NCBI GenBank assembly: GCA_019044685.2
Contig: JAGTXX020000010.1
Coordinates: forward strand, 1 to 64,000
DNA from: Nannochloris sp. 'desiccata'
Lineage: Eukaryota; Chlorophyta; Trebouxiophyceae; Chlorellales; Chlorellaceae
Direction: 5' to 3'
Length of the DNA: 64,000 bases
Shown: in pieces, positions 7,031-49,110 of the stretch
Layout of the letters: each line of letters starts with the position of its first letter
Position numbering within the stretch: the first letter of the stretch is position 1
The notes under the pieces: generated by a model
The model's input: the letters and a program-made list of their open reading frames with translations, nothing else
The model's database searches: none
Told to the model about the DNA's origin: nothing
Translations under genes and position numbers: made by a program

Positions 7031-7510
7031 CTAGCACGTAGCTACACTGGCTTTTTGTCCTCGTTTTGAGATGAATGTGTCGGCATAATAATATATAGTA
7101 ATAAAGAAGACGTCTGCTATATAGAAGAAGGTAGAGGAGTGGTTTGTAACGAACCTTCGCAACATGAGAGGAGTCGCCCTGCAATGGGGCATTCTTGCCT
7201 GGCAGGAGCACAGGCCCTGCAGTAAAAGCATTAAAGAGGTGGTCAGTAGGTATAGATGAACCCAGGGGTGGGATTGATGTAGATAGAGGTTGATGAGGAT
7301 GGCCCAGGACGGACCTGATAGGGCGAAGGTGATGAAGGCATGAGATCAATGGCAGAAAAAAGTTTGGAATATCTTCCGTGAAGCAATTACTGCGTTGTAA
7401 CTGTTTTAAAAGCGTCATATTTGCGATAGATAACTGTAGATACTGTGTACAATTCAAAAGAAAAAGTAATGGGCGTCCGCCCAAGTGAGCTTATATCCGG
7501 CCAACTGCAT
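7031..7510. other. Intergenic stretch with no recognised gene
   Basis: Follows repeat R and precedes the YR element promoter region. No open frame with coding character or recognisable homology was seen. Confidence 0.5.
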
Positions 7511-10500
7511 CCGGCCAAAAGCATGGAGGCCTTGCGGGAGCTGCCACACGCCCCATGCATGGAGTATATTGTACAGTCTAGTTTCTATTTCACGGCTTAA
7601 ATCAAGTCAACTTTTATTCTGACTTGTACAGCTTTCTCTCTGGGCAACATGGAGCCCGCAGCAGCCACCGCTGATTTTGAATCCCAGCCCGGGGTCTTGC
7701 TCACAGCTCATTGTGTTGGCGCAGGGACGGCATCGCCTCGCCGGGGGGATAAAACCCCTGCTTCCTTCGCTGATTACTCCGTTATCAAGCCTGTAAGAGG
7801 ATGCCCTCCGAAGAAGCGAGTTGCAGAGGTCCAGCCTGCGCAGGAGGAGCAGCAGCAACAGGAGGTAGAGCACGACGACCTTTCTGCATTTGCCATCCCC
7901 AGCCTCCCAGCTCTTCCTGACCTCGGTGGCGCTGTCCGTGAATTCATGTTGGGAGAGGGACCGAAGCTGAGTATGGAAGACATCAAGCGCCTGTCAGATC
8001 AAGCCGTTCTCGACCTGTTGGCCAAGATTCCAGAGGCATTCCTTGTCAATGTCGACGCCGACCCCCAGCAGCTGGTCAACGCCAATTTGCTCGATCATGG
8101 GGTGTATTCGCAGTACAAGGACCTCACGCTGCCTCTCCATCGATACCTTGTAGATATGGTATGTGCTGAGTGGTTTGCCAAGCTCTGTGTTTCAACATAA
8201 ACCAATTATTTGAATGCAATCCACAGATTCACCTGGGCTCAAGGTGCTGTTGCAGAATTTGGCTTTTTAATTCTTTGTATGGTGCCTACTGCGCTCTTTT
8301 CAGGCTTCAAGCGTTCTGGGCCATCGCAGGATTTGAAAATGGTGGGTAGGGGGCAGCAGCGAGCAATCATCCTCTGCTTGACGAGTTTCAGAGCTTTGGA
8401 AAGCATGTGTTGGTTGCCCATCATGGCGAGAGTTCCCTTGCTGAGCTGTTGACCTTGAAGAAGACGATGATGGAGGGTAATGCCTTCCCTGCCCTTTGAT
8501 AGCTCCAGGGCTCCCCGCAGGGAGAGTCACTGCGAAAAGAAAGTTGGCCCCGGAGGCAAATTCCTTGCTCGGGACAGAAGAGACAACGACGCTGAACCCC
8601 CACGATTATGAACGGCTTATCGACAGCTGCATGGAGCTCGGCGGAGACGACAGCCGCTCGCAATGGCTTGCTGCAGCGTTCATGACTTTTGGATTCAACA
8701 GTGCCTCGACCTCTGCACAATGAAGTACAAAGCGATGTTCCCGACGACCCAAGACACAAACCCAGTTCAGCATTGCTTGCTAAACGTTAAAAAAGATGGG
8801 AACACAAAGACGAACAGGTATGGCGAGTTCCGTGGTGCTGCATGCGGTCGCCATAAACATGCCCACCTCAACGCTCAAGGCTGGTTAGCCGACATGCTGA
8901 TCTACGATGCCTTGACTCCAGGCAGAGACGTTGACTTTGAGGACTTGGTGTTGCATAGGAGAGAAGAATGGCGCACGATGCCTCTCTTCCATCATGATAA
9001 CGTTGTGTCTGCAGATGGGTTGACCTCCTTGTTCAGCAACCAACTCAGCAAGGCCGGGCTGAGAAATACAACCAACCGCTTGACGCATCTCATGCGGAAC
9101 ACCGCCGCCACCCGAGCTGGTGCGCACTCTTCAGTGGATATCGTAGAACTGCTTGGAGAGTGGAAATCAGGCAGCACCCGTGCCGGCTCTTACCTATCAA
9201 AAAGTCAGTCGTCGACTTTGCCGGCACATCTCGCCCTTGCAGGTTTCAATGGGCCATTCAACCACTATTTAGGGCGTGCTGAGGTACAGGTGCCTGATGC
9301 ACGGGTTGATGTAGTCCTGCCAGGGGTAAGAAGAGCGCTGAAGATGCTCTTGGAGCAGCGCGAAGGGCTGAAGTGCCATGAGAAGGAAATAGGCGCCGAG
9401 ACCTTCTTGCACACTCTGCTGTACTTGGGCATGGTGTTTTGGCAGAATCTCCCTCTGAAGTACCACAACTACCAGGACCGATATACACTGGCTCACCTGA
9501 AAGGCATCAACGGTATCATGCAGACTGTCGAATACAAAATAAATGCTGAGGAGGTGCTCGACAAGGAGCGGCGGGCTATTGAAAAATTGAAAACAAAGCA
9601 AGTAACACCCATGATACTGTCCCCAGAGCCGCTATGGAGGTTTCCAAAGCCTCTACCAAAGTCTACGCCAGCCGCTTGATTTGATTTCGCGACTGCAAGA
9701 CGTGTGCTGACCTCTGGCGCCTGTGGGAGCAAGAGAGACAGATCATCAATAACATAATCGAGAGATCCAACGCCAAGCACGCGCACAGTCTCACAATTCA
9801 GAAGGGAAGGCTCGAAGCTGTCGTGAGGGTTATTGAGAGGCTTTCTGAGGAGGACGGCAGCCTGCAGGACGGTGTTCAAGCTCTGCAGGGGGTCTTGGAG
9901 GAGTTTTGATGCCAAGGAGCGGTCACTTGGTGGGGGAGCAGGCATTAGTATTTCCACGTTCATTGAGGCGCTGCAGGGCGTCGTCAACACAACAGACGTG
10001 CAAAAATTGAAGAGTACTATCAAAGGGAGAACGAAAGTTTCCATGCCGGACCTGAAGAAGATGCTGGATGCCCACTGGCAAGTGACGACGGGCTGGCCGG
10101 CGGTGTGCTATGGCGAGGCTGAAAAGACTGGAGCCAAGTGACTGCAGATGCGCTGACTGCCTGTGGAGCGACATCACCTACCTTTCACTCCATCTGCTGT
10201 CTGCCAGCAGCTTGCAGCTGGAGCTGCTGCATTTGGCCGGCGACGGCTGACAATGCTGGAGGCTGGATCCCCAAAGCCTGCTTTAAGTATAAAAAATGGC
10301 GATGGTCTGTTACATATCGATAGAAAATCCACATTGTAAATGCTTTTAAAGATTAGAGCTGTTATACATGTCAGGAACCAGACTGTGAAGATCTGATCAG
10401 AATCACTGAATCGCTTTGAAGTCAAAATCAGGCCTCCTTGTAACTACAATCTTAATTATATCTGGGAGAGCTATATTTCTGGAAACTATATTTCTTCCAA

Positions 10501-10557
10501 CTCCGTTTTGGTTGCCTGCTCCCACCATCTCCCAGGCTGGGAGATCCAGCAGGGTAT
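7510..10557 (+). mobile_element. Crypton-like tyrosine-recombinase element, copy A
   Basis: The 5' flank (GGAGCTGCCAC..CCCATGCATGGAGT, about 7535-7565) matches the flank upstream of element C at about 49.02-49.04 kb. The 3' flank (10.14-10.56 kb) matches the 3' flank of element B (18.11-18.55 kb, opposite strand) and ends at a shared CAGCAGGGTATA. There are no terminal inverted repeats or LTRs, as expected of Crypton-type elements. It encloses the decayed recombinase gene described separately. A short target duplication could not be identified. Confidence 0.6.
7649..10140 (+). pseudogene. Decayed tyrosine recombinase gene of element A
   Basis: The ATG at 7649 opens an N-terminal region (MEPAAATADFESQPG..., PRRGDKTPASFADY) in which exons 1 and 2 of element C are fused without intron. 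It ends at a donor at 8158/8159. A later exon (about 8305-8479) has an in-frame TAG at about 8358. The recombinase domain (about 8525-9679) is about 90% like element B, but a 10-bp deletion near 8710 removes the catalytic arginine motif (SASRCSD in B) and shifts the frame. Further frameshifts lie near 9600 and 9905. The HLMR (H-x-x-R) and GSYLSK (nucleophile Tyr) blocks remain at about 9090 and 9190. I infer an inactive copy. Confidence 0.75.
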
Positions 10558-10749
10558 AGAAGGCAAAAAAGATGAGAGACCCAATCTTGCTATTTTTACG
10601 AAAACACAGAGCATCTGAAAGTCTAAATCATTTACAATTGTTACATAAACGATCTAATACGTGGTGTTTTTAGGCGCATTGGCTCTCTAAGCCACCAACT
10701 GATTCAATCTTTGTTTTAATACATTTTCACCTAACACAAATTATACATA

Positions 10750-11784: not shown

Positions 11785-12128
11785 TTTTGATTTCGTTGAT
11801 ATCTATACAGAGCATAGCCGTTAAGGACTTTGATACTAACTACTTCTTCTTCTTCTTCTCTGGTGTTATTACCGTATCTATATTCATATAGTTTTCAGTT
11901 TTTTGTTATCTTATGGCGTAATTTTAAACAAAGGAAAGCCACGCAAAAAAGCAGAGAGACAGATTATTCCACAATTTTGAATTTTGGGGGCGGGAGCAAA
12001 AAGAAAAAAAAAGAAAATGGACTGAGAAATGGGGAAAAGAAAATAAAAGCAAATGTGCAGAGTGCTATTACTACAGGCACGTATGTATATATACCCTTTC
12101 AGGCCTAGTGGGTTATTAAAATTGTATT
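11785..12128. other. Convergent 3' region between chlM and the exchanger gene
   Basis: Holds the 3' flanks of chlM (+) and the Na+/H+ exchanger (-). AT-rich with A-runs; no separate gene seen. Confidence 0.5.
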
Positions 12129-12441
12129 TTAACTTTCATCGCCAAATAAAATGGCGTCAGCTGTTGCTGAAGTTGCTGGTCTTGATTGAGATTGCCCTTG
12201 CTGCTGCTGTTGTTGTTGTTGTTCTGAGGCGTCTGTAGGAGAACTATCATCCCATAAGTGGTGATGCGCTGTAGGAATAGCAGTTCCACCCCCACCAATG
12301 CCACTTGCCCCACCATCACGAGTTGTATGGGTCATCGTTGGTGCACCAGCAGCTGTAACTGTATCTGCTCCACCACTGAAGAAATCATCATTACTATATA
12401 TTTGCTGCTTCTGTTGTGGCTCGTGTCCTCCAGGAACCTGA

Positions 12442-12473
<32 letters not shown>

Positions 12474-14270: not shown

Positions 14271-14408
14271 CAATGAGAAAAATACGCATTCTCCCTTGGA
14301 ACAAAGAGTATGTATTGTATATAACGTACCGATACATATCCTGCAACATCCATTGTGCCTTTCTTTGCGTAGATCACACGATTCTAGAAATTTAAAAGTT
14401 CGAATCAA

Positions 14409-18110: not shown

Positions 18111-20520
18111 TGAAAAATTGCTGCATATACCCTGCTGGGAGAGGTTGGGAGCAGGCAACCAAAACAAAGTTAGAAGAAATACATATCCCAGAAATATAGT
18201 TCTCCCACGGATATAGTGAGGACTCCAACTCCAAGGAGGCCCTGATATTTGATTTCAAAGCGATTCTTGATTCTGATCAGATCTTCATCACAGTCTGCTT
18301 CTTGACATTTATAACAGCTCTAATCTTTATATGCGTTTACAATGCGGATTTGATATCGACATGTAACAACCACCATCGTCATTTTTCACTGTTAAAGCAG
18401 CTTTGGGGATCCAGCCGCCAGCCATGATCAGCGTCGCCAGCCAAAAAATGGCAGTAGCCTCAAAAGGGCAGACATCGCACAAGCAAGCTGAGACAACAGA
18501 TGAAGAGAAGCAAAGGTAGGTGATGTCGCTCCAGAGGTCATCAGCGCATCTTCAGCCACTAGGCTCCAGCCTGTTCAGCCTCAGCCCATTGCACTGCCGG
18601 CCAGCTTGTCGTCGTCTGCCAGTGAGCGTCCAGCATGTTCTTCAGGTCCAGCTTGGTGACCTTTGTTCTGCCTTTGATATTACTCTGCAGCTTTTGCATG
18701 TCTGTCGTGTTGACAACGCCCTGCAGCGCCTCAACGAACGTGGAAATGCTGATGCCCGCTCTCCCGCCGAGCGACTTCTCCTTGGCGTCGAGCTTTTCCA
18801 AGACCACCTGCAGAGCGTGAATACCATTCTGCAGGTTGCAATTCTCTTCAGCAAGCCTCACAATCACCCTCACCACCGCTTCGAGCCTGCCCTTCTGAAT
18901 TGTTAGGCCATGGGCTTGCTTGACGTCGCCTCTTTGAATAATGCTGTTGATGATCGGTCTCTCCCGCTCCCACAGGTTCCAGAGGTCGCTGCAGGCCCTA
19001 CAGTCACCAAATGCAATTAAGTGGCTGGCATAGACCTTGATGGAGGCCTTGGGGACCTCCACAGCGACTCTGGGGGGAGCACCATGGCTGCTTTCCTGTC
19101 TGTTTTCGATTTTTTCAATTGCCCGCCGCTCCTTGTCAAGCACTTCCTCAGCAAACTTTTTGTACTGAACGGTCTGCATGATACCGTTGATGCCTTTCAG
19201 GTGAGCCAGTGTATATCGGTCCTGGTACTTGTGGTACTTCAGAGGGAGATTCTGCCAAAACACCATGCCCAAGTACAGCAGAGTGTGCAAGAAGGTCTCG
19301 GCGCCTATTTCCTTCTCATGGCACTTCAGCCCTTCGCGCTGCTCCAAGAGCATCTTCAGCGCTCTTCTTACCCCTGGCAGGACTACATCAACCCGTGCAT
19401 CAGGCACCTGTACCTCAGCACGCCCTAAATAGTGGTTGAATGGCCCATTGAAACCTGCAAGGGCGAGATGTGCCGGCAAAGTCGACGACTGACTTTTTGA
19501 TAGGTAAGAGCCGGCACGGGTGCTGCCTGATTTCCACTCTCCAAGCAGTTCTACGATATCCACTGAAGAGTGCGCACCAGCTCGGGTGGCGGCGGTGTTC
19601 CGCATGAGATGCGTCAAGCGGTTGGTTGTATTTCTCAGCCCGGCCTTGCTGAGTTGGTTGCTGAACAAGGAGGTCAACCCATCTGCAGACACAACGTTAT
19701 CATGATGGAAGAGAGGCATCGTGCGCCATTCTTCTCTCCTATGCAACACCAAGTCCCCAAAGTCAACGTCTCTGCCTGGAGTCAAGGCATCGTAGATCAG
19801 CATGTCGGCTAACCAGCCTTGAGCGTCGAGGTGGGCATGTTTATGGCGACCGCATGCAGCACCACGGAACTCGCCATACCTGTTCGTCTTCGTGTTCCCA
19901 TCTTTTTTAACGTTTAGCAAGCAATGCTGAACTGGGTTTGTGTCTTGGGTCGTGGTGAACATTGCTTTGTACTTCATTGTGCAAAGATCGCTGCAGCGGG
20001 AAGCGCTGCTGAAGCCGAAGGTGATGAACGCTGCAGCAAGCCATCGTGAGCGGGTGTCGTCTCCTCCAAGCCTCATGCAACTATCAATAAGATTTTCGTA
20101 CTCGTGGGGTTTCAGGGTCGTTGTCTCTTCCGTTCCAAGCAAGGAATTGGCCTCCGGGGCGAACTTTCTTTCTGCGGCGACCCTGCCTGCCGTTTCAAGA
20201 GCACTTCTAAACCACGCATCATCCTTCAAGCTACCAGGCCTCGGTATGCCCAGCTGGCACTCTCTTAGTTTTATCATCGCATTTTGAAAAGAACTCGTGG
20301 ATCCTTTCAGGTTGATGCCCTTCAGACCGCTGTCGACAACAACCTGGGCGGCGTCTGCAACTTTGCTCACGGGGTGGGCGAGGTAGGTAAGGGGCTGACC
20401 TTCACATTCTGGCCATTTATTCAGCTCATCGATCGCAGCTTTGAAGTGGTTCCAATGGGTCTGGTAGCTAGCTTTCGTATTATCCGCAAGCTTTCCAAAT
20501 TTGTCATATCAAATACTTGA
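18111..20520 (-). mobile_element. Crypton-like tyrosine-recombinase element, copy B (5'-truncated)
   Basis: Shares its coding region and ~430 bp of 3' flank with element A, ending at the mirrored TATACCCTGCTGGG near 18126. The N-terminal exons seen in A and C (MEPAG..., PRRGDK...) are absent above 20.52 kb, where the sequence becomes unrelated, so this copy is 5'-truncated or has a distant first exon. It lies directly behind the start of mnmE. Confidence 0.6.
18559..20508 (-). CDS. Tyrosine recombinase (Crypton-like), intact catalytic domain
   Basis: Open frame of 649 codons without a certain start (an in-frame TGA lies at 20511; GTG is at 20370). It begins with a SAM-like core-binding domain (LADNTKASYQTHWNHF). 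Counting from 20370, the catalytic set of a DNA tyrosine recombinase is complete: Arg125 in SASRCSDL, Lys155/156 in LLNVKKDGNTK, His254-x-x-Arg257 in LTHLMRNTA, Trp279 in LGEWKS, and nucleophile Tyr289 in AGSYLSK. A C-terminal domain of ~300 residues follows (VLPGVRRALKMLLEQRE..., coiled-coil-like end) that I cannot name; in Cryptons this position often holds a DNA-binding domain. Element A is the same protein with this catalytic Arg deleted. Confidence 0.75.
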   Translation of the reverse strand, partial: YDKFGKLADNTKASYQTHWNHFKAAIDELNKWPECEGQPLTYLAHPVSKVADAAQVVVDSGLKGINLKGSTSSFQNAMIKLRECQLGIPRPGSLKDDAWFRSALETAGRVAAERKFAPEANSLLGTEETTTLKPHEYENLIDSCMRLGGDDTRSRWLAAAFITFGFSSASRCSDLCTMKYKAMFTTTQDTNPVQHCLLNVKKDGNTKTNRYGEFRGAACGRHKHAHLDAQGWLADMLIYDALTPGRDVDFGDLVLHRREEWRTMPLFHHDNVVSADGLTSLFSNQLSKAGLRNTTNRLTHLMRNTAATRAGAHSSVDIVELLGEWKSGSTRAGSYLSKSQSSTLPAHLALAGFNGPFNHYLGRAEVQVPDARVDVVLPGVRRALKMLLEQREGLKCHEKEIGAETFLHTLLYLGMVFWQNLPLKYHKYQDRYTLAHLKGINGIMQTVQYKKFAEEVLDKERRAIEKIENRQESSHGAPPRVAVEVPKASIKVYASHLIAFGDCRACSDLWNLWERERPIINSIIQRGDVKQAHGLTIQKGRLEAVVRVIVRLAEENCNLQNGIHALQVVLEKLDAKEKSLGGRAGISISTFVEALQGVVNTTDMQKLQSNIKGRTKVTKLDLKNMLDAHWQTTTSWPAVQWAEAEQAGA

Positions 20521-21254: not shown

Positions 21255-21340
21255 AATCCTAAGAAACCTTCCTAGAGATTCCCCCTGCTGATCCCCCGCC
21301 GACTGTTTGGCCAAATATTGCGATCCAAACATCTCTGGAG
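21255..21340 (+). promoter_or_regulatory. Conserved 5' leader of the ATPase family
   Basis: The block containing GATTCCCCCTGCTGAT, CCGACTGTTTGG and CCAAATATTGCGAT just before the ATG is nearly identical in the leaders of ATPase copies 2 (46286-46350), 3 (50525-50597) and 4 (53040-53108). Such conservation outside the coding region suggests a retained promoter or 5' UTR, or simply recent duplication. Confidence 0.45.
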
Positions 21341-23992
21341 ATGCTGTCAGGAAAAGGTTTTACTATCTCGAGGCCTAGGGCTGTTCCAAGCCGAACTTCA
21401 CCTCCCCAGCTTGGACAGAAGGTCCGTTTGGGTGGTAATCTGCGATCTCATCTGCATCTCAAGGCCTCTGCCTCTCAAGGATCATCATCGGCTGTTTTTG
21501 GCAAGATTTATAATAGAAAGGAGGAGCTTGCCGCTCTCAACCTAAGGTTTGATAAGAATCCGAAAGATATGCTTATTCTGCTAGGGCCCGCGAATTGCGG
21601 CAAAACAGTAAGTTTTTAGGAAACCTGTTGATCTTTTGTTGCGGAACGAATCTTGTGCTTGCTTATTTCAACCTCTCTCCACACTTTGCGTCTATTTTTT
21701 TTTACCCGTATCCATGCAGAAACTGCTTCAAGAAGTAAAGCAAGATAGGGAGTTTGCTCAAGCTGTAATAGGTGAAGGCCCTCCTCCTATTCTCTACCTG
21801 GACTGTCGTGGAAAAGATATCAGCTCTCCCAAGAAATTTGCGAACGCCATTAGGCAGTTGGTCATTGGAGATGCAGGTCTTAAGAATTGGTGGGCGGGTG
21901 TCAAGATTAAACTACCTGGGTTGGAGCTAGACTGGGAGAAAATATTCGAGCAAGCAGCTGGCAAACCGCCAATGGAGTCCATCATCGACTCTTTGACCAC
22001 ATTCTTAGAAGCAACGCGTCCATTGCCTTATAAACCCGTCATTATCATTGATGAGGTCAACAAGTTAATGAGATGGAGCGATGATCCTGGCCACATAGAG
22101 CTTAAAAACCTTCTTGATTTTTTTGTACGGACGACGAAACAGGAGCATCTGGGCCACTTTGTGCTGGCATCTTCTGAATCGTTTGTGATTGATTTTCTTG
22201 AGAAAGGTAAGCTGAGTAAGTATGTGCTAGCAATGTGTATTGTTGGATCCTACCTACTTATTTATTTGACTTTCCCTGTCGATACCCCACCTCATGCTTT
22301 CTTTTTCTTTTCTTTCCAGATTTCATACTGTCAGAAATATTACGCCCGCCATTTTTTTCTCGGACGGTGAAAAACAGCCGAGACAAGCAAAATTTCACGT
22401 AGATTCCTGCGCGGCCCTGTAAAATAACATCGCAAATCTTTTTTCGACACTCTAGATCTCAGAGCACGGCCAAAAGACTGCAGAAGACGCGCAAGCACTC
22501 CATCTGATCTTGCTCGAAATTGAGTTGACCTGGCCCCAAGTATCCGGAGGCAGGGATTTTCCGAATGTCTCAACGTTATTGTGTGCCTGCATTGTGTAAG
22601 AATACTGTACAGGGTAAGGGGCGGTCCAAAGCGCTGTAGGAAAAAAAGAGTAGCGAAATATCAATGATCTGATTATTCTTCTTGTATTAAACTGCAGGTT
22701 GAACCGTATTGTGGAGCAGAGACCATGCCGCGGATAACACGAAGAGATAAACAAACTGCTGCCGCTACGCTGAAACGCAAGCAAGAAGTTGCGGTCAGCG
22801 AAGAATCACCAAATTTGCAGCGCCCGCCTGATGAATCTACGCGTCTTCGTGGAGCAATGCGGAGCTACTGCTTTCCAGGTGGAATACAATATGCGATGCA
22901 ACGTTTGGGAATATGACGCGCTGCGCGTTCTGTGGAATATGTAACCTCGGCGGGAAAAACAGGAATTGGAAGACCGTTGCCCCGCCTACGGAAGATGGAG
23001 AGGCTATGCCGCCGAAGTCTCTCCCTTTTACCGCTCTTTCAACCTAACTTGAACAGTAACCCATTACTTGAAATGTATAAAATGTGCGATGCAACGGTTG
23101 GGGACAAGACGTCATAAGGCTGCAAGCTGATGGAAAAGAAGCGGCACCGTGACGCTTGCCAACATATCCGCTGCTGAAAAAGCAATAGCGCCGGCGCCCC
23201 TGTTTCTACTGCGTTCTTGCATCTATTTAAAATAACTTCATCGTGAATCTCTCATGTAACCTTACATCGAACTTCTATAAACACTTCAGCCAAGTATCTG
23301 CGAAAGAAATCTGCATTCTAGTTAAAATTTCTATTTGCCTTGCAGAGGGTCTCCACACCAAGCAATATGTCACCCAAGAAATTGGAGACTTGGCTACCAT
23401 CGACGAAGCTAAGCAATTTGTCGAGAGCCTCATGCTTTGTAAGAAGGCACCGTCGTCTTTCTTTGATACGACAGAAAATGGAGAGCAGATTGACATGTGG
23501 CCTCGGGTGTATGAAATATGTGGTGGAAACATTGGGTTACTTGAACGATGTGCAAAGCATTCAAACCGTCTCAAGAGCTGGGAGAAGGGTTTGAAATGGG
23601 TTAGCAGGGATCTTGAAGGTGCAGTGAAGAGGGGTCTCTGGCCTGGAGGGTTTTCAAGAGCTGGTGGCAGTCGTTCCCCGGCAGCTTGGACAAAAGAGAA
23701 TTACAAGACTGTGTTGAGAGAAATCGCCCTTGCAAAGAAGCACAAGCATGCAGTCTCTTTTGACAAACTGGAAGATGCGGCGGGTGAAGCCGCGCTATTG
23801 TCAATGGTGGAATGGAACCTCGTGGCGCTGCGAAGAAAATCTGAATGGGCTAAGGATTTGCCTGAAACGGTCTTTGCTGACTTAAATGATACGAAACTGC
23901 TGACAATGCCTTCTCCTGCAGAGTTGTATTTTGTATTGAAGATGTATGAAGCTGGGAAGCTTGATGCAGCACCTCCAAATGATGATAAATAA
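21341..23992 (+). CDS. ATPase_2-like P-loop ATPase, copy 1
   Basis: Three exons: 21341-21607, 21720-22206 and 23345-23992 (acceptor CCTTGCAG). N-terminal ~45 residues are basic and hydroxyl-rich (PRAVPSRTSPPQ), perhaps an organelle presequence. Walker A is LLGPANCGKT (80-89), its Thr being the last codon of exon 1. Walker B is VIIIDEVNKL (196-205), and the sensor-like strand is HFVLASSES (~236-244). Exon 3 is an all-alpha, probably winged-helix-like C-terminal region containing ICGGNIGLLERCAKHS. This is the pattern of ATPase_2/archaeal-type (STAND-like) ATPases; substrate and role unknown. Intron 2 is ~1.1 kb instead of ~0.15 kb because of an insertion (22316-23322). No lesion was seen in the coding parts. 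Confidence 0.7.
22316..23322. mobile_element. ~1-kb insertion in intron 2 of ATPase copy 1
   Basis: The corresponding introns of copies 2-4 run straight from CTTTTCTTT to AAAATTTCTATTTGCC; here about 1.0 kb of unrelated DNA separates the two. It has an internal near-repeat (TGCGATGCAACG.TTGGG at about 22.89 and 23.08 kb) and an open frame of 63 codons at 22725 of unknown meaning. No terminal inverted repeats were recognised. Mobile origin is inferred from the clean presence/absence difference. Confidence 0.5.
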
Positions 23993-24119
23993 ATAAAGAA
24001 AGAAAAGTTTTAGTTTTTAGTTTTCCCCTTTACTCTATTTGTTACCATTTTCTCTGCTTGTATTTTTTGTTTTACAGATTAATTGTTTGAATGTAAGTGT
24101 ATAATGGCATAGTCAGCGA

Positions 24120-24660
24120 AGGAGGCAGGGTTTTTATCTCCCCGGCGAGGAATGTTCAGTTGGCGGTGAAAATGCGTTCCTCACCAAAATGAGATAGAAA
24201 GCCAGTGTAGCTGCGTCTGAGCAGGGCAACTTGCTGCATATGGGTGGTGCAACAGTATATGAAAGCGCAGCTCTGATTGCCGGAGGTTTGTCTACCAAAC
24301 TGGCGCTCTTTAGATAGCTTGGAACCACTGGTGGCTGGAGGGCGGCGGGAGCGGTGGTGGAAGCAAGTGTGATTTGCTCATGGCAGCAGCGACTCAGCCA
24401 AGGGAAGAACGAGCGCAGCTGGATATTCAACGAGCTCATGTCGTTGATTTGATATCGTAGATGCTGCCACTCAGGGTGCAGACGCAGCGAGTGTTCAGGA
24501 ATCGCCTGAGCGATCATCAAGTTTATGATCAACGCAGCATTGGTGGTGGCGAGCAGGCTGCTGCAACCCCCCGCAGATATTTAGTATACATTTTCTCTTT
24601 GCAGGAATTGCTCAGAATGGCGTTTAAATGCCGTTTCCCAGCCATCTCCCAGCTTTCTCC
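24120..24660 (-). repeat. Dispersed repeat R, 3' of ATPase copy 1
   Basis: Reverse-complement match to the R copies at 44.0 and 46.5 kb: from CTCCCCGGCGAGGAATGTTC through the GGTTTGTCTACCAAACTGGC block to GGCGTTTAAATGCC, then runs of CTCCCAGC. The end next to the ATPase contains the segment that matches exon 2 of the YR element (CGCCGGGGAGATAAA sense). Confidence 0.75.
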
Positions 24661-25215: not shown

Positions 25216-25548
25216 TTAATAGCAAGGGGGAACTTGCGGATGAAGTGGAGCTATTGCTTGTTGGGAATTGGCACTGCCGCCGCCCGCTGCAGGGTCTTCA
25301 TCGTGAGAGAGATCAACGCGATCTGGATTGATATCCATAGCGTCATAATCCTCGTATCCATCTTCTTGAAGGCCCTGATCAAAGGCATCGAGGGTAAATT
25401 TCGCAAAGAAAGTTGCTTCCACCGCCGCCGCCGTGATATTTACCGCTGCTGCTGAAGGCTCATCTCTTCTTTTTGTTTTATCAGCACCACCAGTTGCTGC
25501 AGCCACTGTAGCCAAATAGGTGCGGAACATGATGTGCATTGTGTTCAT
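25216..25548 (-). CDS. Small acidic hypothetical ORF
   Basis: 110 codons with an ATG at 25548. The C-terminal half is acidic (DGYEDYDAMDINPDRVDLSHDED) and then Gly/Ala/Pro-rich. No family recognised and no conserved partner elsewhere in the window. It lies inside the putative transposon, 3' of nuclease-like gene C. It may be a spurious frame. Confidence 0.2.
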   Translation of the reverse strand: MNTMHIMFRTYLATVAAATGGADKTKRRDEPSAAAVNITAAAVEATFFAKFTLDAFDQGLQEDGYEDYDAMDINPDRVDLSHDEDPAAGGGSANSQQAIAPLHPQVPPCY

Positions 25549-25861
25549 TACATGTGTGCTACAGAATGACAGAAAAGAAAGAACATTAAAACAGAAAGGA
25601 CGTCATTTTGACCCTAAAAAAAATGAAAGAAATCATAAGTTTAAAAGAAAGTATTACTAGTAGACAAAGTAAAAGAAAAATTGTAAGAGCACGCGTAGAT
25701 GGTGTTTTTCTAGGTAAAAGATAAAAACATTTAAGACTAAGAATAAAGAACAGGATTATATATGCAGCAAAAAGAAAGAACGCTAATTAATTTATTTATT
25801 GAGTTTGTTTTTGAAATTGAAATAATAAAGAAAGAAAACACAACCCAGGACTATCTGGGGG

Positions 25862-27271
25862 TTAGAAAGTAAGCCTAAATCCAGTAACCCTGTTGTTAAC
25901 CAAACGAGGGCGTACAAGCATGGCTGGTCCTCGCATTGGGGCGAGGAAAGAGCGCCCACCTCTCCGAGGCACGGCAGATGGTGGGGCGTTGGGGCTGGTG
26001 CCTGGAGTATCTGAGGGCGAAGAAATATCACATGAATCCCCTGAGGCCTGGAAAGTGCTGCAAGGGTCGTCACCGTAGAGCCCATCCGTGGAAATTCTTT
26101 TATAACCCAGGCTTTCGATGACGTTGTTCATTAATTCTTGCTTCTCTCCTCCGACCTCAGGTGCGCTGGCCAGAACACCAATGATGCGCTTGCCCCTAAA
26201 GAGGGACACATTCCCCTCGTCCTGGTCACGGTATTTCCTGCAAAAAGAAAAAGGGAAAGCATGAGAAAGACAAAGGAGATCAGAATTGTGAAAAATTGTG
26301 AAAAAATTACACAGGAACGACGACTCACAAAGTAAATGCAATGGCCCTCTGAAGTTGCTCAACGCCCTTCATACTCATCACATGTTTGTGCTCTGCTACC
26401 ATAGCACAATCCGGACTAATGGCTGCTGCGTCGATTTCTTTAAATTTGCCACCAGGACCATAAACCCTTTTGGAGGAAAAGGGCTCGACGTCGGTATGAT
26501 CTTTCTGGAGCAATTTTACGAGTGCTGACCTCACATGTCGTTCCTCAGCCTCAGCATGACTTCGTTGCCAGGCCGCCAGGTCATCAACCTGTAAAATCAA
26601 AGAAACAAAGGTGAAATTTAGCAAACGACGATCAGCGAAGATTTGAAAAGAAAACTACCAAAGATAACAAAAAGGTGCTTACCCTCTTCCTTAAACCTTT
26701 TTCTCCGGAGTGAATTAAAATGAACGTTGCATTATCGCAAAGCTCGACATCCAGCGGCGATTCGTCCTTCAGAATGAAGGCTGTAGGACTTAAACTATAT
26801 TTAAGAAAATCTTCAAGACGCACTACTGCTACGGCACCTTCATCTTTAACTCTTGAAACAAAGCCCTGTCGGGATACTTTTTTTAGCAATGCTGTCCCAA
26901 ACGGGTGGGCAGGATCAAAATCCTCTGGATTGCCCCGCAGCAACGTAATGCGCTCGTATAAGTCCGGTATGGGCGGTGTAGGATGAACTACAATATAGGT
27001 CGCGTTGTTACGAAGCTCGACCTCCAGCGGCGATTCCAGCTCAAGCCGTTGTAGGATCTTCAAGAAGAACAACTCGAGAAGGGCCATTTCTACCGTTCAC
27101 GGAGTCGACAAAGCTCGCTCGCGAAACTCTTCTCAGCAGCTCTGTCTTGAAAGGGCGCGTTGGGTCGAAATTTTGAGGGAACCCCTTGTTAGGATTGCCA
27201 AAAAGCAATGTGATTCCCTCATAGAATCGTGCCGTGGACGGTGCGGACGGCAAGGAAAATAAATCCCCCAT
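25862..27271 (-). CDS. PD-(D/E)XK nuclease-like protein, copy C, with duplicated N-terminal domain
   Basis: Exons 27271-26683, 26588-26329 and 26237-25862 with intron positions as in copies A and B. The ATG at 27271 begins MGDLFSLP, again a Gly2/Ser6 myristoylation-type start. Exon 1 holds the N-terminal domain twice: first from ARFYEGITLLFGNP, then PDLYERITLLRGNP to ATFILIHSGEKG. A frameshift at about 27050-27090 separates the first half of the first repeat (ending VVLLEDP) from its end (LELESPLEVELRNNATYIVV). Exon 2 carries EIDAAAIS ... MVAEHKHVMS, so the E-x-D and E-x-K motif is kept. The tail (APMRGPAMLVRPRL) matches A and B. With the frameshift the gene may be a pseudogene unless translation starts in the second repeat. 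Confidence 0.55.
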
Positions 27272-27343
27272 GGTTACAGGATACTGTAAATGAATAATAT
27301 GAAACGAGAATGGAGGTGAAGGCCACAAAACTACAATTATACT

Positions 27344-32605: not shown

Positions 32606-33566
32606 CTAGGCAAAACTCTCCTCTCCACCTTCGCTGGGTGGATTGCTTCCTGCTGCGGAAGGAACTCTCGGTGCCATCAAAGACGCGTTTACGATATTGT
32701 TCGTAAGCCCGTTTATCTTTGCATTGGTCCTCGTCTCAGCGTCAGACACCGCCGTATACATGGCTGCCTGGTCTTGAAGACGCCATTCTCCAGCTTGCGT
32801 CTTCCATTCGTTGACAGCTGCAAGAACGGCCTTGATGTCGACCGAGTTCGCGTCTATTTTCTTAAAGAGTTCATCCTTTACTTCTTGCAGCTGCTCCTTC
32901 GCTTCAGCCTTGCTTGCGTCTATTTTCTTAAAGAGTTCATCCTTTGCTTCTTGCAGCTGCTCCTTCGCTTCAGCCTTGCTTGCGTCTATTTTCTTAAAGA
33001 GTTCATCCTTTACTTCTTGCAGCTGCTCCTTCGCTTCAGCCTTGCTTGCGTCTATTTTATTTATTATTATGGGAACCGCATATAACAAAACGCCGATGAG
33101 GCAACTGATCTCAGGAGATAACGTCGCACCCACCGCCTGCAGAGGGTTTGAAGTTAAGGGAACTAAAATGAGCTGAAAGCAAAAACAATGAAGTAATTTA
33201 ACCCAAACACAAAAGATTTCCCAGTTGACTTGCCTTCTGATATTGCAAATATAGCAAGTAGCTGGCCAAGGGTAGCCAGTTCAACCAAGACGCCAACAAT
33301 TTTTTAATTTGATCTAACAAAGAGGGGCCTCGTTTCTCCTTAGAGGTCTCCACAGGAGCCATACTAGCTAACACAATAGCCGATACGCAGTTCGGGGGTT
33401 TCCCGAGAGCTACGCGGTTTCTGCCAGCATGAGCAAGCTGTTGCTCCTGCGACATCTTGCCTGGAGTGACGGGGGTCCCGAGCAATAACAAGGGAGCCAT
33501 TCGACAACGTCTATTTGGCACAGACAACGCCCTGGAATAGGCTCGGAAGCCAAGAACACTACGCAT
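32606..33566 (-). CDS. Two-exon coiled-coil repeat protein, possibly organellar
   Basis: Probable exons: 33566 to about 33230, and about 33136-32606. They are joined by a GC-AG intron (donor CAGAAG/GCAAGT, acceptor CTCTGCAG) that keeps phase 0. The N-terminus (MRSVLGFRAYSRALSVPNRR) looks like a mitochondrial presequence. A hydrophobic stretch (CLIGVLLYAVPIII) follows the junction, then three tandem 22-residue repeats IDASKAEAKEQLQEVKDELF plus a partial fourth (32850-33060), an extended coiled coil, and an Ala/Ser/Glu-rich C-terminus. Function unknown. It lies wholly inside the insert bounded by the 295-bp direct repeats. Confidence 0.45.
32850..33060 (-). repeat. Three 66-bp tandem repeats in the coiled-coil gene
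   Basis: Units 32850-32915, 32916-32981 and 32982-33047 plus a partial unit, differing at only one or two bases. Coding, in frame (22 codons each). Confidence 0.9.
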
Positions 33567-43762: not shown

Positions 43763-43929
43763 CTTGCTCCCAGCGTTTGACTACGCAATTCTATAATAGC
43801 TGACACTTTACTGCCGCTAATTAAAAGGGTGCAGTTACGGCGAGGGCTGCTAACAAATTTTCCTTTTTTTTGAATTAGAAAGCCCATTATCGGGCGTCTG
43901 AGTGTGGGGGATGAGAAACTTTCTTTGAT

Positions 43930-44505
43930 TTGAAATCAAGGCTGGGAGAAGAGCTGGGAGAAAGCTGGGAGATGGCTGGGAAACGGCATTTAAACGCCAC
44001 TCTGAGCAATTCCTGCAAAGAGAAATGTATACTATATCTGCGAGAGGCTGGAGCAGCCTGCTCGCCACCAATGCTGCGTTGATCATAAAGTTGATGATCG
44101 CTCAGGCGATTCCTGATCACTCGCTGCGTCTGCACCCCTGAGTGGCAGCATCTACGATATCAAATTATTGCCATCAGCTGATTGAACATCCAATTGCGCT
44201 CGTTCTCCTCTTGGCCGAGTCGCTGCTGCCATGAGCAAATCAAACTTGTTTCCACCGCCGCTCCCGCCGCCCTCCAGCCACCAGTGGTTCCAAGCTATCT
44301 AAAGAGCGCCAGTTTGGTAGACAAACCTCCGGAAATCAGCGCTGCGCTTTCATATACTGTTGCACCACCCATATGCAGCAAGTTGCCCTGCTCAAACGCA
44401 GCTACACTGGCTTTCTATCTCATTTTGGTGAGGAACGCATTTTCACCGCCAACTGAACATTCCTCGCCGGGGAGATAAAAACCCTGCCTCCTTCACGGAC
44501 TATGC
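43930..44505 (+). repeat. Dispersed repeat R, 3' of ATPase copy 2
   Basis: Starts near GGCTGGGAGAAGAGCTGGGA, passes through the GATCATAAAGTTGATGATCG and GACAAACCTCCGGAAATCAG blocks, and ends with CCTCGCCGGGGAGATAAAAA and CTCCTTCACGGACTATGCC. The last part aligns with YR exon 2 (PRRGDKTPASFADY codons). It is a direct repeat of 46440-46960, so ATPase copy 2 is bracketed by R. Confidence 0.8.
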
Positions 44506-44621
44506 CATTATACACTTACATTCAAACAATTTAATCTGTAAAACCAAAAATTACAAGCAGAGAAAGTGGTAACAAATAGAGTGAAGGGAAACACTAAAAA
44601 CTAAAACTTTTCTTTCTTTCT

Positions 44622-46285
44622 TTATTTATCATCATTTGGAGGTGCTGCATCAAGCTTCCCAGCTTCATACATCTTCAATACAAAATACAACTCTGCAGGA
44701 GAAGGCATTGTCGCCAGTTTATCATCATCTAGGTCAGCAAAGACCGTTTCAGGCAAATCCTTAGCCCATTCAGATTTTCTTCGCAGCGCCACGAGGTTCC
44801 ATTCCACCATTGACAATAGCGCGGCTTCACCCGCCGCATCTTCCAGTTTGTCAAAAGAGACTGCATGCTTGTGCTTCTTTGCAAGGGCGATTTCTCTCAA
44901 CACAGTTTTGTAATTCTCTTTTGTCCAAGCTGCCGGGAAACGACTGCCACCAGCTCTTGAAAACCCTCCAGGCCAGAGACCCCTCTTCACTGCACCTTCA
45001 AGATCCCTGCTTACCCATTTCAAACCCGCTTCCCAGCTCTTGAGACGGTTTGAATGCTTTGCACATCGTTCAAGCAACCCAATATTTCCACCACATATTT
45101 CATACACTCGAGGCCACATGTCAATCTGCTCTCCATTTTCTGTCCTATCAAAGAAAGACGACGGTGCTGTCTTACAAAGCATGAGGCTCTCGACAAATTG
45201 CTTAGCTTCGTCGATGGTAGCCAAGTCTCCAATTTCTTGGGTGACGTATTGCTTGGTGTGGAGACCCTCTGCAAGGCAAATAGAAATTTTAAAGAAAAGA
45301 AAAAGAAAGCATGAGGTGAAGGAGATATGGTGGGTAGGAAAAAAGGCAAATAAATAAGCTGGTAGATAGATTCTAGCATTACACCATTGCTAGTTTGGGA
45401 CACTTTCTCAGCTTACCCTTTTCAAGAAAATCAATCACAAACGATTCAGAGGACGCCAGCACAAAGTGCCCCAGATGGTCTTCTTTTGTCGTAGCAACAA
45501 AGAAACGAAGAAGGGCTTTAAGCTGCGTGCGCCCGGGATCGTCATGCCAATCCAACAGCACGTTGGCCTCGTCAATGATAATGACGGGTTTGTAAGGCAA
45601 AGGCCGTATTGCTTCCAAGCATGCGGTCAAAGAGGCGATGATCGAAGCCATGGGTGGCGCTGGGTCATCTGCCGGCCCGAACAATGTCCCCAAATCTACC
45701 TGGATGTAAGGGAATTTAAGCTTGACAGCCTTCCACCATTTGCCAAAAGCTGTATCTTTAGTGACAAGCTCCCTGATGGCGTTCGCAAACTGCTGCGGAG
45801 AGCTGATATCTTTCTTACGGCAGTTCAGGTAGAGAATAGGAGGAGGGCCTTCACCTATTACAGCTTGGCCTAACTCCCTATCTTTCTTCACTTCTTGAAG
45901 TAGTTTCTGCATGAATATGGGTGTAACATTTAGACGCAAAGTGTGGAGAGAGGTTGAAATCAGCAAGCACAAGATGAGTTCCGCAACAAAAGGGTCAAGA
46001 GGCTTCTGAAGAACTTACTGTTTTGCCGCAATTCGCGGGCCCTAATACAATAAGCAGCTCACTTGGACTATCATCAAACACTTCATTGAGAGCGGCAAGC
46101 TCTTCCTTTCTATTAAAAATCTTGCCAAAAACAGCCGATGATGATCTAGCTGCAGCCCACGCCGTGACCTGAAAACGAGGTCGCAGACTGCCAGCTAAGC
46201 GGACCTTCTGTTCACTCTGGGGAGGTGAGGTTCGGCTTGGAACAGCCCTAGGCTTCGAGATAGTAAAACCTTTTCCTGCCAGCAT
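44622..46285 (-). CDS. ATPase_2-like P-loop ATPase, copy 2
   Basis: Exons 46285-46019, 45906-45417 and 45268-44622; 467 residues, no lesions. Walker A VLGPANCGKT ends exon 1; Walker B is VIIIDEANVLLDW. Exon 2 is the most divergent of copies 1-4 (KKDISSPQQFANAIREL, FPYIQVDLGTLFGPADD), whereas exon 1 is almost identical to copy 4 and exon 3 to copy 3. This patchwork indicates recombination or gene conversion among copies. Repeat R lies on both sides in the same orientation. Confidence 0.75.
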
Positions 46286-46439
46286 CTCCAGAGATGTTTG
46301 GATCGCAATATTTGGCCAAACAGTCGGCGGGGAATCAGCAGGGGGAATCTCTACGAAGGTTTTTTACGGTTTTAATATTTGACAATGACAAATTAATGTT
46401 ATTTATCGTTGATATGTGGGGAGAAATCAAGAAAGCGAG

Positions 46440-46960
46440 GCCTCCCTAGAACTGGCATTTAAACGCCACTCTGAGCAATTCCTGCAAAGAGAAATGTATA
46501 CTATATCTGCGAGAGGCTGGAGCAGCCTGCTCGCCACCAATGCTGCGTTGATCATAAAGTTGATGATCGCTCAGGCGATTCCTGATCACTCGCTGCGTCT
46601 GCACCCCTGAGTGGCAGCATCTACGATATCAAAGTATTGTCATCAGCTGATTGAACATCCAATTGCGCTCGTTCTTCCCTTGGCTGAGTCGCTGCTGCCA
46701 TGAGCAAATCACACTTGCTTCCACCACCGCTCCCGCCGCCCTCCAGCCACCAGTGGTTCCAAGCTATCTAAAGAGCGCCAGTTTGGTAGACAAACCTCCG
46801 GAAATCAGCGCTGCGCTTTCATATACTGTTGCACCACCCATATGCAGCAAGTTGCCCTGCTCAGACGCAGCTACACTGGCTTTCTATCTCATTTTGGTGA
46901 GGAACGCATTTTCACCGCCCCTCCACCTCCAACTGAACATTCCTCGCCGGGGAGATAACG
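46440..46960 (+). repeat. Dispersed repeat R, 5' of ATPase copy 2
   Basis: Nearly identical to the R copy at 43930-44505 from TTTAAACGCCACTCTGAGC onward. It breaks off at CTCGCCGGGGAGATAA (about 46958), where unrelated sequence begins. Confidence 0.8.
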
Positions 46961-47109
46961 ACTTTTTCTTCGAGCCTTTCTTCGAGCTTCTCTTCGCCAA
47001 ATGGCTCGAGGGTGCTCAAATAATAACAATTAAACTAGATACATACTCGATGAAAGTGGTGATTTTATGATTTTACAAAGGGTGATGATGGGCTAGAAAG
47101 GCATATAAA

Positions 47110-47515
47110 GATTTGGCAGGTAAAACTAAAGGTCCTGGTGATGACTTTAAACTCCCTGGTTCGAGTCGGTTCTCCGTGGAGGCGTAGGGGCTTTTCATCG
47201 GTTCGCCCGGTTTTACCCCTCAGATCTCCAGCCGGCTCGCATCGAAAACCAGCCTCAATATACTTGCTGCGGAAGCGAGGGATTGTGGGGTGGGTTCCCC
47301 AATGTTCAACTCTGACCACAAGGTCCCTGAGGCTGAGTGTACAGTACTGCTCCCCTCTTGTGATATGGAGAGCTGATTATGGTCTTGTCCTCTTCCTTCA
47401 TCTGTTTCCTTCTATATATGCATTTCTCTGTCCTTTGTACTAGAGAGACTCGATCATTTCGATGAGGTCACAGGTGAGGTGGCTCGGGTTACATGTAACA
47501 ACTAAACTAAACTAA
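47110..47515 (+). mobile_element. Possible SINE or LINE tail with (ACTAA)n 3' end
   Basis: Near its start it has CCTGGTTCGAGTCGG, a good RNA polymerase III B-box match (GGTTCGAGTCG). Its end has ACTAGAGAGACTCGATCATT and then four AACTA-type units before unique sequence. A B-box head plus a simple-repeat tail is the layout of a tRNA-derived SINE. No second copy exists in this window and no target duplication was found, so this is tentative. Confidence 0.4.
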
Positions 47516-47995
47516 ACTAAAACGTGTTGGAAAGTGCAAATGCCGGGGCATGTCTGGGCATATCAAAGAAGCCCAATGGGAAAAGAATGCGTCTATTTAG
47601 GATTAACGTGCTACAGCTGGCCATTATGCAGCTCCGCAACGCAGCTTCTGCTGCTCCAGTTCTAAATTAGGCTGTGGGTTTCCGTCGCAGGGTCGGCGGC
47701 GGCGGCTGTTTATCAGACGAGGAATAGGGAGGCACCAGATGCGCTCTCTAAGCTGACGCATGGTGAGTACCATTTATCTGCTAGATAGCTGATACGGTGG
47801 CAACTGATGAAGCTGAAGACCATTGATCAAGGATCGCTGTTTTCAAAATGATATTTTTGAACAATTATTCTCCATCTAAAGTGCTCCAGCGCCAAGACAG
47901 GCTTCAAGCGTATTACTATAGTAATGCGGAGGTCTTTCTGGACTAATTCTCGCTGTTTCTCACTGTTTCCCAGGGTCTGAAAATTTGTTTCTCAG
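47516..47995. other. Intergenic, nothing recognised
   Basis: Between the (ACTAA)n element and YR element C. No gene seen. Confidence 0.4.
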
Positions 47996-47999
47996 GCTG

Positions 48000-48932
48000 A
48001 GCCCTCTGCCGGGACACCAAGCTGGATGGCAATAAGGCGGGCCAGAGCCGACTGAAAGACACTCAGTGTGCCAGAGGGGTGCTGCATCTTTCAACCATCG
48101 ACTGCAGACTGAATAACCGAGTCGATGGAAGCGGCAATGCCATCATACGGGAGCACCACTGCCGTGGTCACTACAGGCTGGTGAGCCCCGGTGACTCTGT
48201 GAATCGCATTCAAAATAGTTGGATTTGGTCGTGAAAAGGAGCTTTCCAAACCACTCTGCACATACCCTATCTATAAGGTACCGCTGTAGAGGCAGCGCGA
48301 GGTGCTTGTATTGGGAGTACACACCAATATCAAGCAAGTTGGCGTTGACCAGCTGTTGGGGGTCTGCGTCCAGATTGACAAGGAAGGCAGCGGGAATTTT
48401 GGCCAACAAGTTGAGCACAGCTTGGTCTGAGAGGTGCTTGATGCCTTCCATGCTCAGCTTCGGCCCCTCGCCCAACATGAATTCACGGACAGCGCCACCG
48501 AGGTCAGGGAGAGCTGGGAGGCCGGGGATGGCCAATGCAGCAGGAAGGTCGTCCTCCTCCTCCTCCTCCTCCTCCTCCTCCTCCTGCTGCTGCGTAGGCT
48601 GGACCTCTGCAACACGCGTCTTCGGAGAGCGTCCTCTCTTCTTTTTCTGAGACCTGACAGGCTCGATAACGGCATAGTCCGCGAAAGAAGCAGGGGTTTT
48701 ATCACCCCGGCGAGGTCTTGTCGACCCTGCAGCAACACCAACAAGGTCAGCGAAAAAGCAGCACAAAAACATCGACAAGGGAGAACCTAAACCTACCCGT
48801 GGGTCCATTAGAAGCTGGCTGGGCTTGAGAAGGTTCTTCAATCGAAGCAAAGAGGTCTGGCTGGGATTCTATTGCTGTGAGCAAGACCCCGGGTTGGGAT
48901 TCAAAATCAGCGGTGGCTCCTGCAGGCTCCAT
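48000..48932 (-). pseudogene. N-terminal exons of the YR-element protein, truncated
   Basis: Exon 1 48932-48797 (MEPAGATADFESQPG...), exon 2 48726-48266 (PRRGDKTPASFADYAVIEP, a run of Glu codons at 48552-48583, then LGGAVREFMLGEGPKLSMEG) and part of exon 3 from 48196. Splice sites are intact for introns 1 and 2, and the phases fit. Exon 3 aligns weakly with the start of the element B frame (SVFQSALARLIAIQLGVP against SSFQNAMIKLRECQLGIP) but has an in-frame TGA. The sequence stops matching near 48000, before the catalytic domain. This copy shows the intact intron 1 that is missing in element A. Confidence 0.65.
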
Positions 48933-49110
48933 GTTGCTCAGGGAGAAAGCTGCTGCAAGTCAGAATAAAAGTTGATTTGATTGAAGATGTGAAATGGAAC
49001 TTAGACTTTACAATACACTCCATGCATGGGGCGAGTGGCAGCTCCCTCAAGGTTGGAAGCTGGTGCAGTACCGGCCAAGAAAGGAACAAGGATAATTGTC
49101 TAGCAGAAAC
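48000..49110 (-). mobile_element. Crypton-like element, copy C (3'-truncated)
   Basis: 5' flank (48933-49110) matches that of element A (7.51-7.65 kb), including CCCATGCATGG. N-terminal exons are present, but no recombinase catalytic region follows below 48 kb. Confidence 0.6.

What the first reader, a model, noticed from the sequence alone, without database searches (positions are those of the whole stretch)
7510..49110. Crypton-like tyrosine-recombinase element family in an algal genome
Three copies (7.51-10.56, 18.11-20.52, 48.0-49.11 kb). Copy B has the complete R, K, HxxR, W, Y set in canonical order; copies A and C supply the N-terminal exons that B lacks. No inverted repeats or LTRs, shared 5' and 3' flanks. 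The N-terminal domain (LGGAVREFMLGEGPKLS...) and the ~300-residue C-terminal domain are unfamiliar to me.
Basis: partly seen in the sequence, partly recalled or inferred. Interest (0 to 1): 0.8.

Follow-up and report, generated by a model that had tools for sequence, protein, structure and literature searches.

The report
Two-recombinase mobile element in alga
Broken copies of a mobile DNA element in a green alga's genome, whose fuller relatives elsewhere in the same genome carry two different cut-and-join enzymes and DNA-copying genes.

Summary
The three copies are real, and copy B carries a full tyrosine-recombinase (YR) set (R171, K201, H300xxR303, W325, Y335). The reading as one Crypton-like gene with N-terminal exons is wrong. 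The "N-terminal domain" of copies A and C belongs to a second, paralogous YR gene, YR-B (up to 1,021 aa). The B-type gene (YR-A) has its own N-terminus and can be a single frame (733 aa at C9:901 kb). The genome, identified by protein matches as Nannochloris sp. 'desiccata', holds 18 YR-A and 23 YR-B loci by my count. In 10 of the 18, a YR-B piece lies just upstream on the same strand. The fullest such copy reads U–YR-B–ankyrin–SF3 helicase (reverse)–YR-A–tail; at C8 that helicase is fused to a TV-Pol-type polymerase. Best explanation: a self-replicating two-recombinase element (transposon or polinton-like/virophage-like provirus) whose internally deleted, decayed derivatives lie in the window. 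YR-A shows purifying selection (median dN/dS 0.23, 78 pairs). Searches found relatives only in this alga and in metagenomes. AlphaFold failed (pLDDT 33 and 36). No capsid gene was found, but that test was weak.

The parts
6600..7090 (+). Copy A: left-end block 'U', found 5' of YR-B and YR-A copies and also beside other repeats
7601..8490 (+). Copy A: YR-B gene fragments (L051 numbering 35-220; P0021 residues 107-209 then 658-728), internally deleted; not exons of YR-A
8517..10135 (+). Copy A: YR-A pseudogene (residues 107-649 of the copy-B frame), broken by stops
10137..10557 (+). Copy A: 3' tail and right end, with a short insertion near the terminus
18124..18560 (-). Copy B: 3' tail and right end TCTCCCAGCAGGGTATAT (18125-18142)
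18562..20508 (-). Copy B: YR-A open frame, 649 aa, 5'-truncated (about 63 residues missing), catalytic R171 K201 H300 R303 W325 Y335
47851..48868 (-). Copy C: YR-B fragment (P0021 residues 41-308), frame broken
48874..49052 (-). Copy C: YR-B 5' leader segment shared with A, L036, L037, L038, L039, L047
49411..49736 (-). Copy C: left-end block U

Best explanation
The window holds three decayed, internally deleted derivatives of a mobile element that carries two paralogous tyrosine recombinases, YR-B near the left end (U) and YR-A near the right end (tail), flanking replication genes (a helicase, fused to TV-Pol in related loci) read on the opposite strand. Shown: the gene order, in pieces across many copies; a shared right end; conserved catalytic residues; purifying selection on YR-A; YR-A/YR-B homology. 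Inferred: the TV-Pol/helicase copies the element; the ends are joined into a circle; YR-A and YR-B, perhaps as a mixed pair with one enzyme per end as XerC/XerD share one site (recalled), excise it and insert it at sites resembling GGGTATAT-R-GGGCAAAA. Short copies that keep both ends could move in trans. Whether the parent is a transposon or an integrated polinton-like/virophage-like virus is open.
For: YR-A against YR-B: hhalign probability 95.3, E 2.1e-8, 524 columns, R/HxxR/W/Y regions aligned. L032: U piece–YR-B C-terminus(+)–ANK(-)–SF3 helicase(-) with the linker that in the C8 protein joins it to TV-Pol–YR-A(+)–tail; L031: YR-B C-terminus–ANK(-)–helicase(-)–YR-A–tail. C9: YR-A(-) 901.7 k, TV-Pol/Herpes_ori_bp-type helicase(+) 904.8 k, YR-B(-) 916.8 k. 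Of 18 YR-A loci, 7 have a YR-B piece within 4.5 kb, upstream on the same strand (two of them a palindromic pair); random mean 0.16, maximum 3 in 5,000 trials; L031 and L032 and L037 (5' segment only) make 10 of 18. Helicase: DUF5906 E 1.8e-16, Pox_D5 0.0033. TV-Pol hallmarks R, D, RxxxK, D in both polymerase proteins (definition read in Iyer 2008, section 5). dN/dS median 0.23 in 78 pairs, range 0.14-0.52. Inverted end repeat scores 33 vs shuffle maximum 26 and 33 vs 24.
Against: No copy with U, intact YR-B, intact polymerase/helicase, intact YR-A and tail was read in full. The C9 and C8:504k loci are pieced together from matches; about C9:907-915.6 kb is unseen apart from one DUF5871-type match. 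Neither locus shows a recognisable window-type end: no tail hit in L040, no right-end 18-mer there, no U listed nearby (which scored 40 of 81 candidates), so their link to the window copies rests on gene homology and order. L032 lacks the TV-Pol core. C8:504.9-511.1 has YR-B and TV-Pol/helicase but no close YR-A (a YR-C lies at 522.6 k). 8 of 18 YR-A loci show no YR-B gene piece close by (one, C9:901k, has it about 15 kb away; one, C9:533k, only the leader). No terminal direct repeats found. YR Pfam matches are below threshold; both AlphaFold models failed. U also borders P-loop ATPase repeats, so U could be an independent repeat.
Confidence: 0.57

Rival explanations
1. The parent is an endogenous polinton-like virus or virophage with a capsid; the window pieces are degraded provirus ends and the YRs are its integrases. 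(A more exact form of the best explanation, so the odds overlap.)
For: TV-Pol fused to SF3 helicase plus a YR is a known PLV/virophage set (PMC4642659, PMC12220804, passages read). A DUF5871-type domain (weak, E 0.01) lies near the replication gene at C9:908.6 k and is fused to YR-C at C8:523 k. The unseen part of C9 is long enough for capsid genes.
Against: No Capsid_NCLDV match in the genome, though that family rang in none of the 14 control genomes either, and no Pox_A32 match (rang in 2 of 14 controls). No relatives in viral contigs for six queries, though such scans reach mainly close kin. Inverted repeats are 20-26 bp, not hundreds.
Confidence: 0.4
2. A Crypton: a minimal element whose only core gene is one YR; YR-B and replication genes are chance neighbours.
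For: YR-A copies without YR-B exist (for example L033, L043); weak NDC10_II similarity.
Against: Neighbourhood far beyond chance and in one order and strand at the loci where both occur; an inverted terminal repeat in some copies; no GCR1_C or DUF3504 match; no short terminal direct repeats seen.
Confidence: 0.12
3. YR-A and YR-B are a host gene family (domesticated recombinases or DNA-binding proteins) amplified by segmental duplication.
For: Purifying selection; some intact frames; clustering with a P-loop ATPase family of which 82 matches exist in the genome.
Against: A common right boundary against unrelated flanks at many loci; conservation of the whole catalytic set even at 46% identity; many broken copies; replication genes alongside.
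Confidence: 0.1

Closest known systems
Polinton-like viruses and virophages with TVpol-S3H and a YR (PgVV, Sputnik/OLV groups, cryptophyte PLVs)
   Same: TV-Pol fused to SF3 helicase together with a tyrosine recombinase; integrated in protist genomes; recombinase near an end
   Different: Two paralogous YRs here, one toward each end; short inverted repeats; no capsid found so far; no YR relatives found outside this alga and metagenome proteins in the searches made
Crypton DNA transposons (F, S, A, I)
   Same: YR with R-H-R-Y in a eukaryotic DNA element; weak NDC10_II similarity
   Different: A second YR and replication genes in the fuller copies; inverted end repeat in some; no GCR1_C or DUF3504 match; no 4-6-bp terminal direct repeats seen
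Bacterial multi-recombinase transposons (Tn554 TnpA/TnpB, RIT elements; recalled, no call)
   Same: More than one YR gene in one element, same strand
   Different: There the genes are adjacent; here they lie toward opposite ends with replication genes between; eukaryotic host
Bacterial TV-Pol elements with lambda-type integrase (Iyer 2008)
   Same: Proposed replicative transposon: TV-Pol plus integrase plus D5-like helicase
   Different: Green-algal genome, two YRs, polymerase and helicase fused

Membership tests
Tyrosine recombinase superfamily | R...K...HxxR...(H/W)...Y catalytic set in order | tested here: met
   YR-A: R171, K201, H300, R303, W325, Y335, conserved in copies that cover them with 2 exceptions; YR-B: HLGR, GW, SY
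Tyrosine recombinase superfamily | YR fold | tested here: inconclusive
   AlphaFold pLDDT 32.9 and 35.8; Pfam Phage_integrase best E 0.017 (a YR-A member) and 0.041 (YR-B frame of L051), under cut-off; no Phage_integrase match for P0021
Crypton | no terminal inverted repeats | tested here: inconclusive
   20-26-bp inverted repeat above all 500 shuffles in 3 of 6 copies (one by a single point), not in the other 3
Crypton | 4-6-bp direct repeats at both ends | tested here: inconclusive
   no strong direct match between end regions of 6 copies (scores 12-20); no null was run for direct repeats and 4-6 bp is below what the test resolves
Crypton | GCR1_C (F) or DUF3504-type (A) domain | tested here: not met
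   absent at E up to 1 for all 13 members scanned; S-type Cryptons lack GCR1_C too (passage)
Crypton | YR as the core gene, without replication genes | tested here: not met
   SF3 helicase and a second YR lie between U and tail in L032; several short copies do lack them
Starship captain (DUF3435) | DUF3435 profile match | tested here: not met
   absent at E up to 1
DIRS retrotransposons | reverse transcriptase in the element | tested here: inconclusive
   no RT domain among the few ORFs scanned by Pfam; C9:907-916 kb unseen
TV-Pol family | hairpin R, palm D, fingers RxxxK, second palm D | tested here: met
   by motif in L053 and L040; no Pfam or PHROGs profile match to the domain
Polinton-like virus / virophage | TVpol-S3H or other primase-helicase | tested here: met
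   one 914-aa frame at C8:508.4-511.1, beside YR-B
Polinton-like virus / virophage | major and minor capsid proteins | tested here: inconclusive
   Capsid_NCLDV silent, but silent in all 14 controls too
Polinton-like virus / virophage | packaging ATPase | tested here: inconclusive
   no Pox_A32 match in the genome; rang in 2 of 14 controls

The most novel reading that the evidence does not exclude
A capsid-less, self-replicating eukaryotic DNA transposon that encodes its own polymerase-helicase and moves by a dedicated pair of non-identical tyrosine recombinases, one per end: a class distinct from Cryptons, DIRS, Starships and polintons.
Probability: 0.25. Interest if true: 0.82.

Novelty: new variant of a known kind. 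Interest (0 to 1): 0.6.

Why it matters
YR elements in eukaryotes are few and their mechanism is little tested. An element with two paralogous YRs around a TV-Pol/helicase would link small YR transposons to replicating virus-like elements and offer a model for division of work between two recombinases outside bacteria. It would also add two YR families whose relatives we could find only in this alga and in metagenome proteins.

Tried and rejected
Rejected: A and C as N-terminal exons of the B gene (they belong to YR-B). Rejected: P-loop ATPase as a core gene of the element. It is a large family (82 matches); some copies share U and a ~50-bp YR-B piece, so it may be cargo. Led nowhere: PDB sequence searches (no match); protein searches with YR-A and YR-B alignments (only N. 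desiccata and jgi/ena proteins; in each only the ~8,000 candidates sharing most words were scored); viral-contig scans (no relative; not run for lack of conserved stretches); AlphaFold, so no fold search was run. (first dN/dS run) took five loci on the wrong strand; those values are dropped, its three valid pairs gave 0.16-0.21, and one search replaces it. Simple lox-like reading of the ends: the right end has TCTCCCAGC-AGGGTATAT and several left ends have GCTGGGAGA, so a joined circle would put inverted arms around an ~8-9-bp spacer, but left flanks do not carry the same spacer; kept only as an idea. Literature: ten searches; I saw the listings, passages of seven papers and one section of one of them, and met no eukaryotic element with two YRs and no Crypton in trebouxiophyte algae. 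Most listed papers were not opened, and only open-licence PMC papers are held.
Mended after a check against the calls: right-end count (GCAGGGTATAT, not AGCAGGGTATAT, in 10 of 16), L032 lacks the TV-Pol core, and no window-type end was recognised at C9 or C8:504k; the confidence was lowered from 0.62 to 0.57 and the novel case from 0.27 to 0.25 for that.
Full report
Where this is. Protein matches place the window in Nannochloris sp. 'desiccata'; the genus is chlorellacean green algae; the genome handle itself is unnamed. The window is bases 1-64,000 of contig C10 of a 21.55-Mb, 18-contig assembly.

Observation. Copies A and B share the same gene (YR-A here) and 3' tail in inverted orientation, and A and C share a 5' block. 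Copy B is a 649-aa open frame. Its catalytic residues R171, K201, H300, R303, W325 and Y335 are present in the YR-A copies that cover them, including a 46%-identical divergent copy at C9:901 kb; the exceptions are copy A (Q for the first R) and C11:1955k (H for Y). Genome-wide, tblastn with copy B gives 34 matches. I merged fragments and set aside three distant matches (C16:436.8k, C10:747.8k, C8:523k; a third type, 'YR-C') to reach 18 loci.

The segment LGGAVREFMLGEGPKLS belongs to another gene. At C3:649,274-651,202 it is part of a 643-aa open frame whose C-terminal half carries HLGR...GW...SY. The annotated protein P0021 is 1,021 aa. I call this YR-B. Genome-wide it gives 45 matches; I counted 23 loci after merging fragments and leaving out seven weaker rows (C14:241.8k and 242.2k, C10:274.2k and 274.7k, C9:849k, C12:335k, C5:530k). 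Copy A holds YR-B residues 107-209 and 658-728, then jumps to YR-A; copy C holds only YR-B. YR-A has its own N-terminus (MELPTNAIECLSRLW... in P0004), found in L031, L033, L037 and L041, and can be a single frame: 733 aa at C9:901 kb, 690 aa at C8:410 kb. So the data do not require introns, and copy B is simply 5'-truncated.

Two paralogous recombinases. Profile-profile comparison of YR-A and YR-B gives probability 95.3 and E 2.1e-8 over 524 columns; the alignments are shallow, so the E-value should be read with care. A post-catalytic (W/L)(Q/R)N(L/V)P motif was found by pattern in 3 of 6 frames (divergent YR-A, YR-B P0021, a YR-C frame) and by eye in copy B (WQNLP). Neither family matches Pfam above cut-off: YR-A gives NDC10_II (6 of 13 members, best E 0.014) and Phage_integrase (5 of 13, best 0.017); YR-B gives Phage_integrase in 2 of 9 (best 0.066), 0.041 for the L051 frame, and none for P0021. 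Alignment searches returned only N. desiccata and jgi/ena proteins: 20 for YR-A, 9 for YR-B. Such searches need shared five-residue words and scored about 8,000 candidates each, so distant relatives may be missed. AlphaFold models were unusable (mean pLDDT 32.9 and 35.8).

Element anatomy. A ~490-bp block U lies 5' of YR-B or YR-A in many copies, and a ~440-bp tail follows YR-A. The right end is sharp: of 16 right ends printed, 10 contain GCAGGGTATAT and then diverge, with a tendency to GGGCAAAA just outside (counts over 11 flanks). The 18-mer occurs 13 times in the genome with up to 2 mismatches, control 0. L033 and L038 show a ~25-bp inverted terminal repeat beyond all 500 shuffles, L042 a 20-bp one by a single point, and A, L037 and L046 none. 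In L032 the order is U piece – YR-B C-terminus – ankyrin(-) – SF3 helicase(-) with the linker that joins it to TV-Pol in the C8 protein – YR-A – tail; the TV-Pol core itself is missing there. L031 has YR-B C-terminus – ankyrin(-) – helicase(-) – YR-A – tail. The helicase matches DUF5906 at 1.8e-16. At C8:508.4-511.1 TV-Pol and SF3 helicase form one 914-aa frame just after a stop-free YR-B frame. At C9, YR-A(-) 901.7 k, TV-Pol with a Herpes_ori_bp-type helicase(+) 904.8 k, a match to the DUF5871-type domain of L050(+) 908.6 k and YR-B(-) 916.8 k follow one another; the DUF5871 label rests on a sub-threshold match (E 0.01). Window-type ends were not recognised at C9 or at C8:504k (no tail in L040; no 18-mer; no U listed nearby among 40 of 81 candidates scored). 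The TV-Pol label rests on the four hallmarks described by Iyer 2008 (section read), found by motif in both proteins. Of 18 YR-A loci, 7 have a YR-B fragment within 4.5 kb, upstream on the same strand (two of the seven are the palindromic pair at C2, which also gives two opposite-strand cross-pairs); random placement gives a mean of 0.16 and a maximum of 3. L031 and L032 and L037 (5' segment) raise this to 10 of 18; of the other eight, C9:901k has YR-B about 15 kb away and C9:533k has only the YR-B leader.

Age and state. Pairwise dN/dS among 13 YR-A copies (C9:901k excluded for saturated dS): median 0.23, range 0.14-0.52, n = 78. Synonymous distances of about 0.18-1.26 mean the YR-A copies of this type are old. 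One YR-B protein (P0021, on a contig of C8's length) is 99% identical to the C9 copy, hinting at more recent movement of a YR-B lineage. A and B show a conversion tract: 99-100% identity over about 600 bp, 74-93% in the other windows, while B against C8:410k is 78-92% inside and 84-96% outside (one ragged 85-column window 56%). B's catalytic centre therefore probably came from an A-like copy, and its open frame alone is not proof of activity.

Comparison with known systems. TV-Pol/SF3 helicase plus a YR is a recognised gene set of polinton-like viruses and virophages (Yutin 2015 PMC4642659; PMC12220804; passages read). Cryptons are described as lacking inverted terminal repeats and having short direct repeats (Kojima & Jurka 2011 PMC3212892; passages read). 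The element works like a YR-integrated replicating element. Membership in Cryptons is not supported (replication genes and a second YR in the fuller copy; no GCR1_C or DUF3504), though the end-repeat tests are inconclusive; membership in the polinton-like viruses is undecided because the capsid test was weak. The two-YR arrangement was not met in the ten paper searches, of which mostly listings and passages were seen.

Verdict. A real, unusual element family, misread as a one-gene Crypton. Most likely a two-recombinase replicating element with decayed short derivatives in this window; whether transposon or provirus needs the unread stretch at C9.

Noticed in passing
window 21255-24643, 43974-46363, 50541-55185: Repeated units of about 2.5 kb carrying a P-loop ATPase gene (ATPase_2, E 3.6e-8 in one) that end in block U plus a ~50-bp YR-B piece on the opposite strand; similar arrays at C8:352-355 kb and 386-393 kb next to YR-B. 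Possibly cargo-bearing derivatives in head-to-tail array.
   Followed up: partly
window 1701-3700, 4614-6534, 25538-27274: Repeated gene family of unknown function (ORF 2891-3589, minus strand), two of the three preceded by pieces of U; also beside YR-A copies in L038 and L042.
   Followed up: no
window 8825-9450 and the matching part of 18562-20508: Gene conversion tract between inverted YR-A copies A and B, about 10 kb apart.
   Followed up: yes
L048, L049, L050 (C16:437 k, C10:748 k, C8:523 k): Third YR type (YR-C); the L050 frame has KVGR...HQGW...NYLKK and continues in frame into a DUF5871-like domain (E 0.01, sub-threshold); P-loop ATPase genes lie nearby in L049 and L050.
   Followed up: partly
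L038 (C2:555500-565400): Near-perfect palindromic duplication of a YR-A copy, head to head; real or assembly artefact unknown.
   Followed up: no
window 32850-33058: 66-bp tandem repeat, 3.2 copies; period divisible by three.
   Followed up: no
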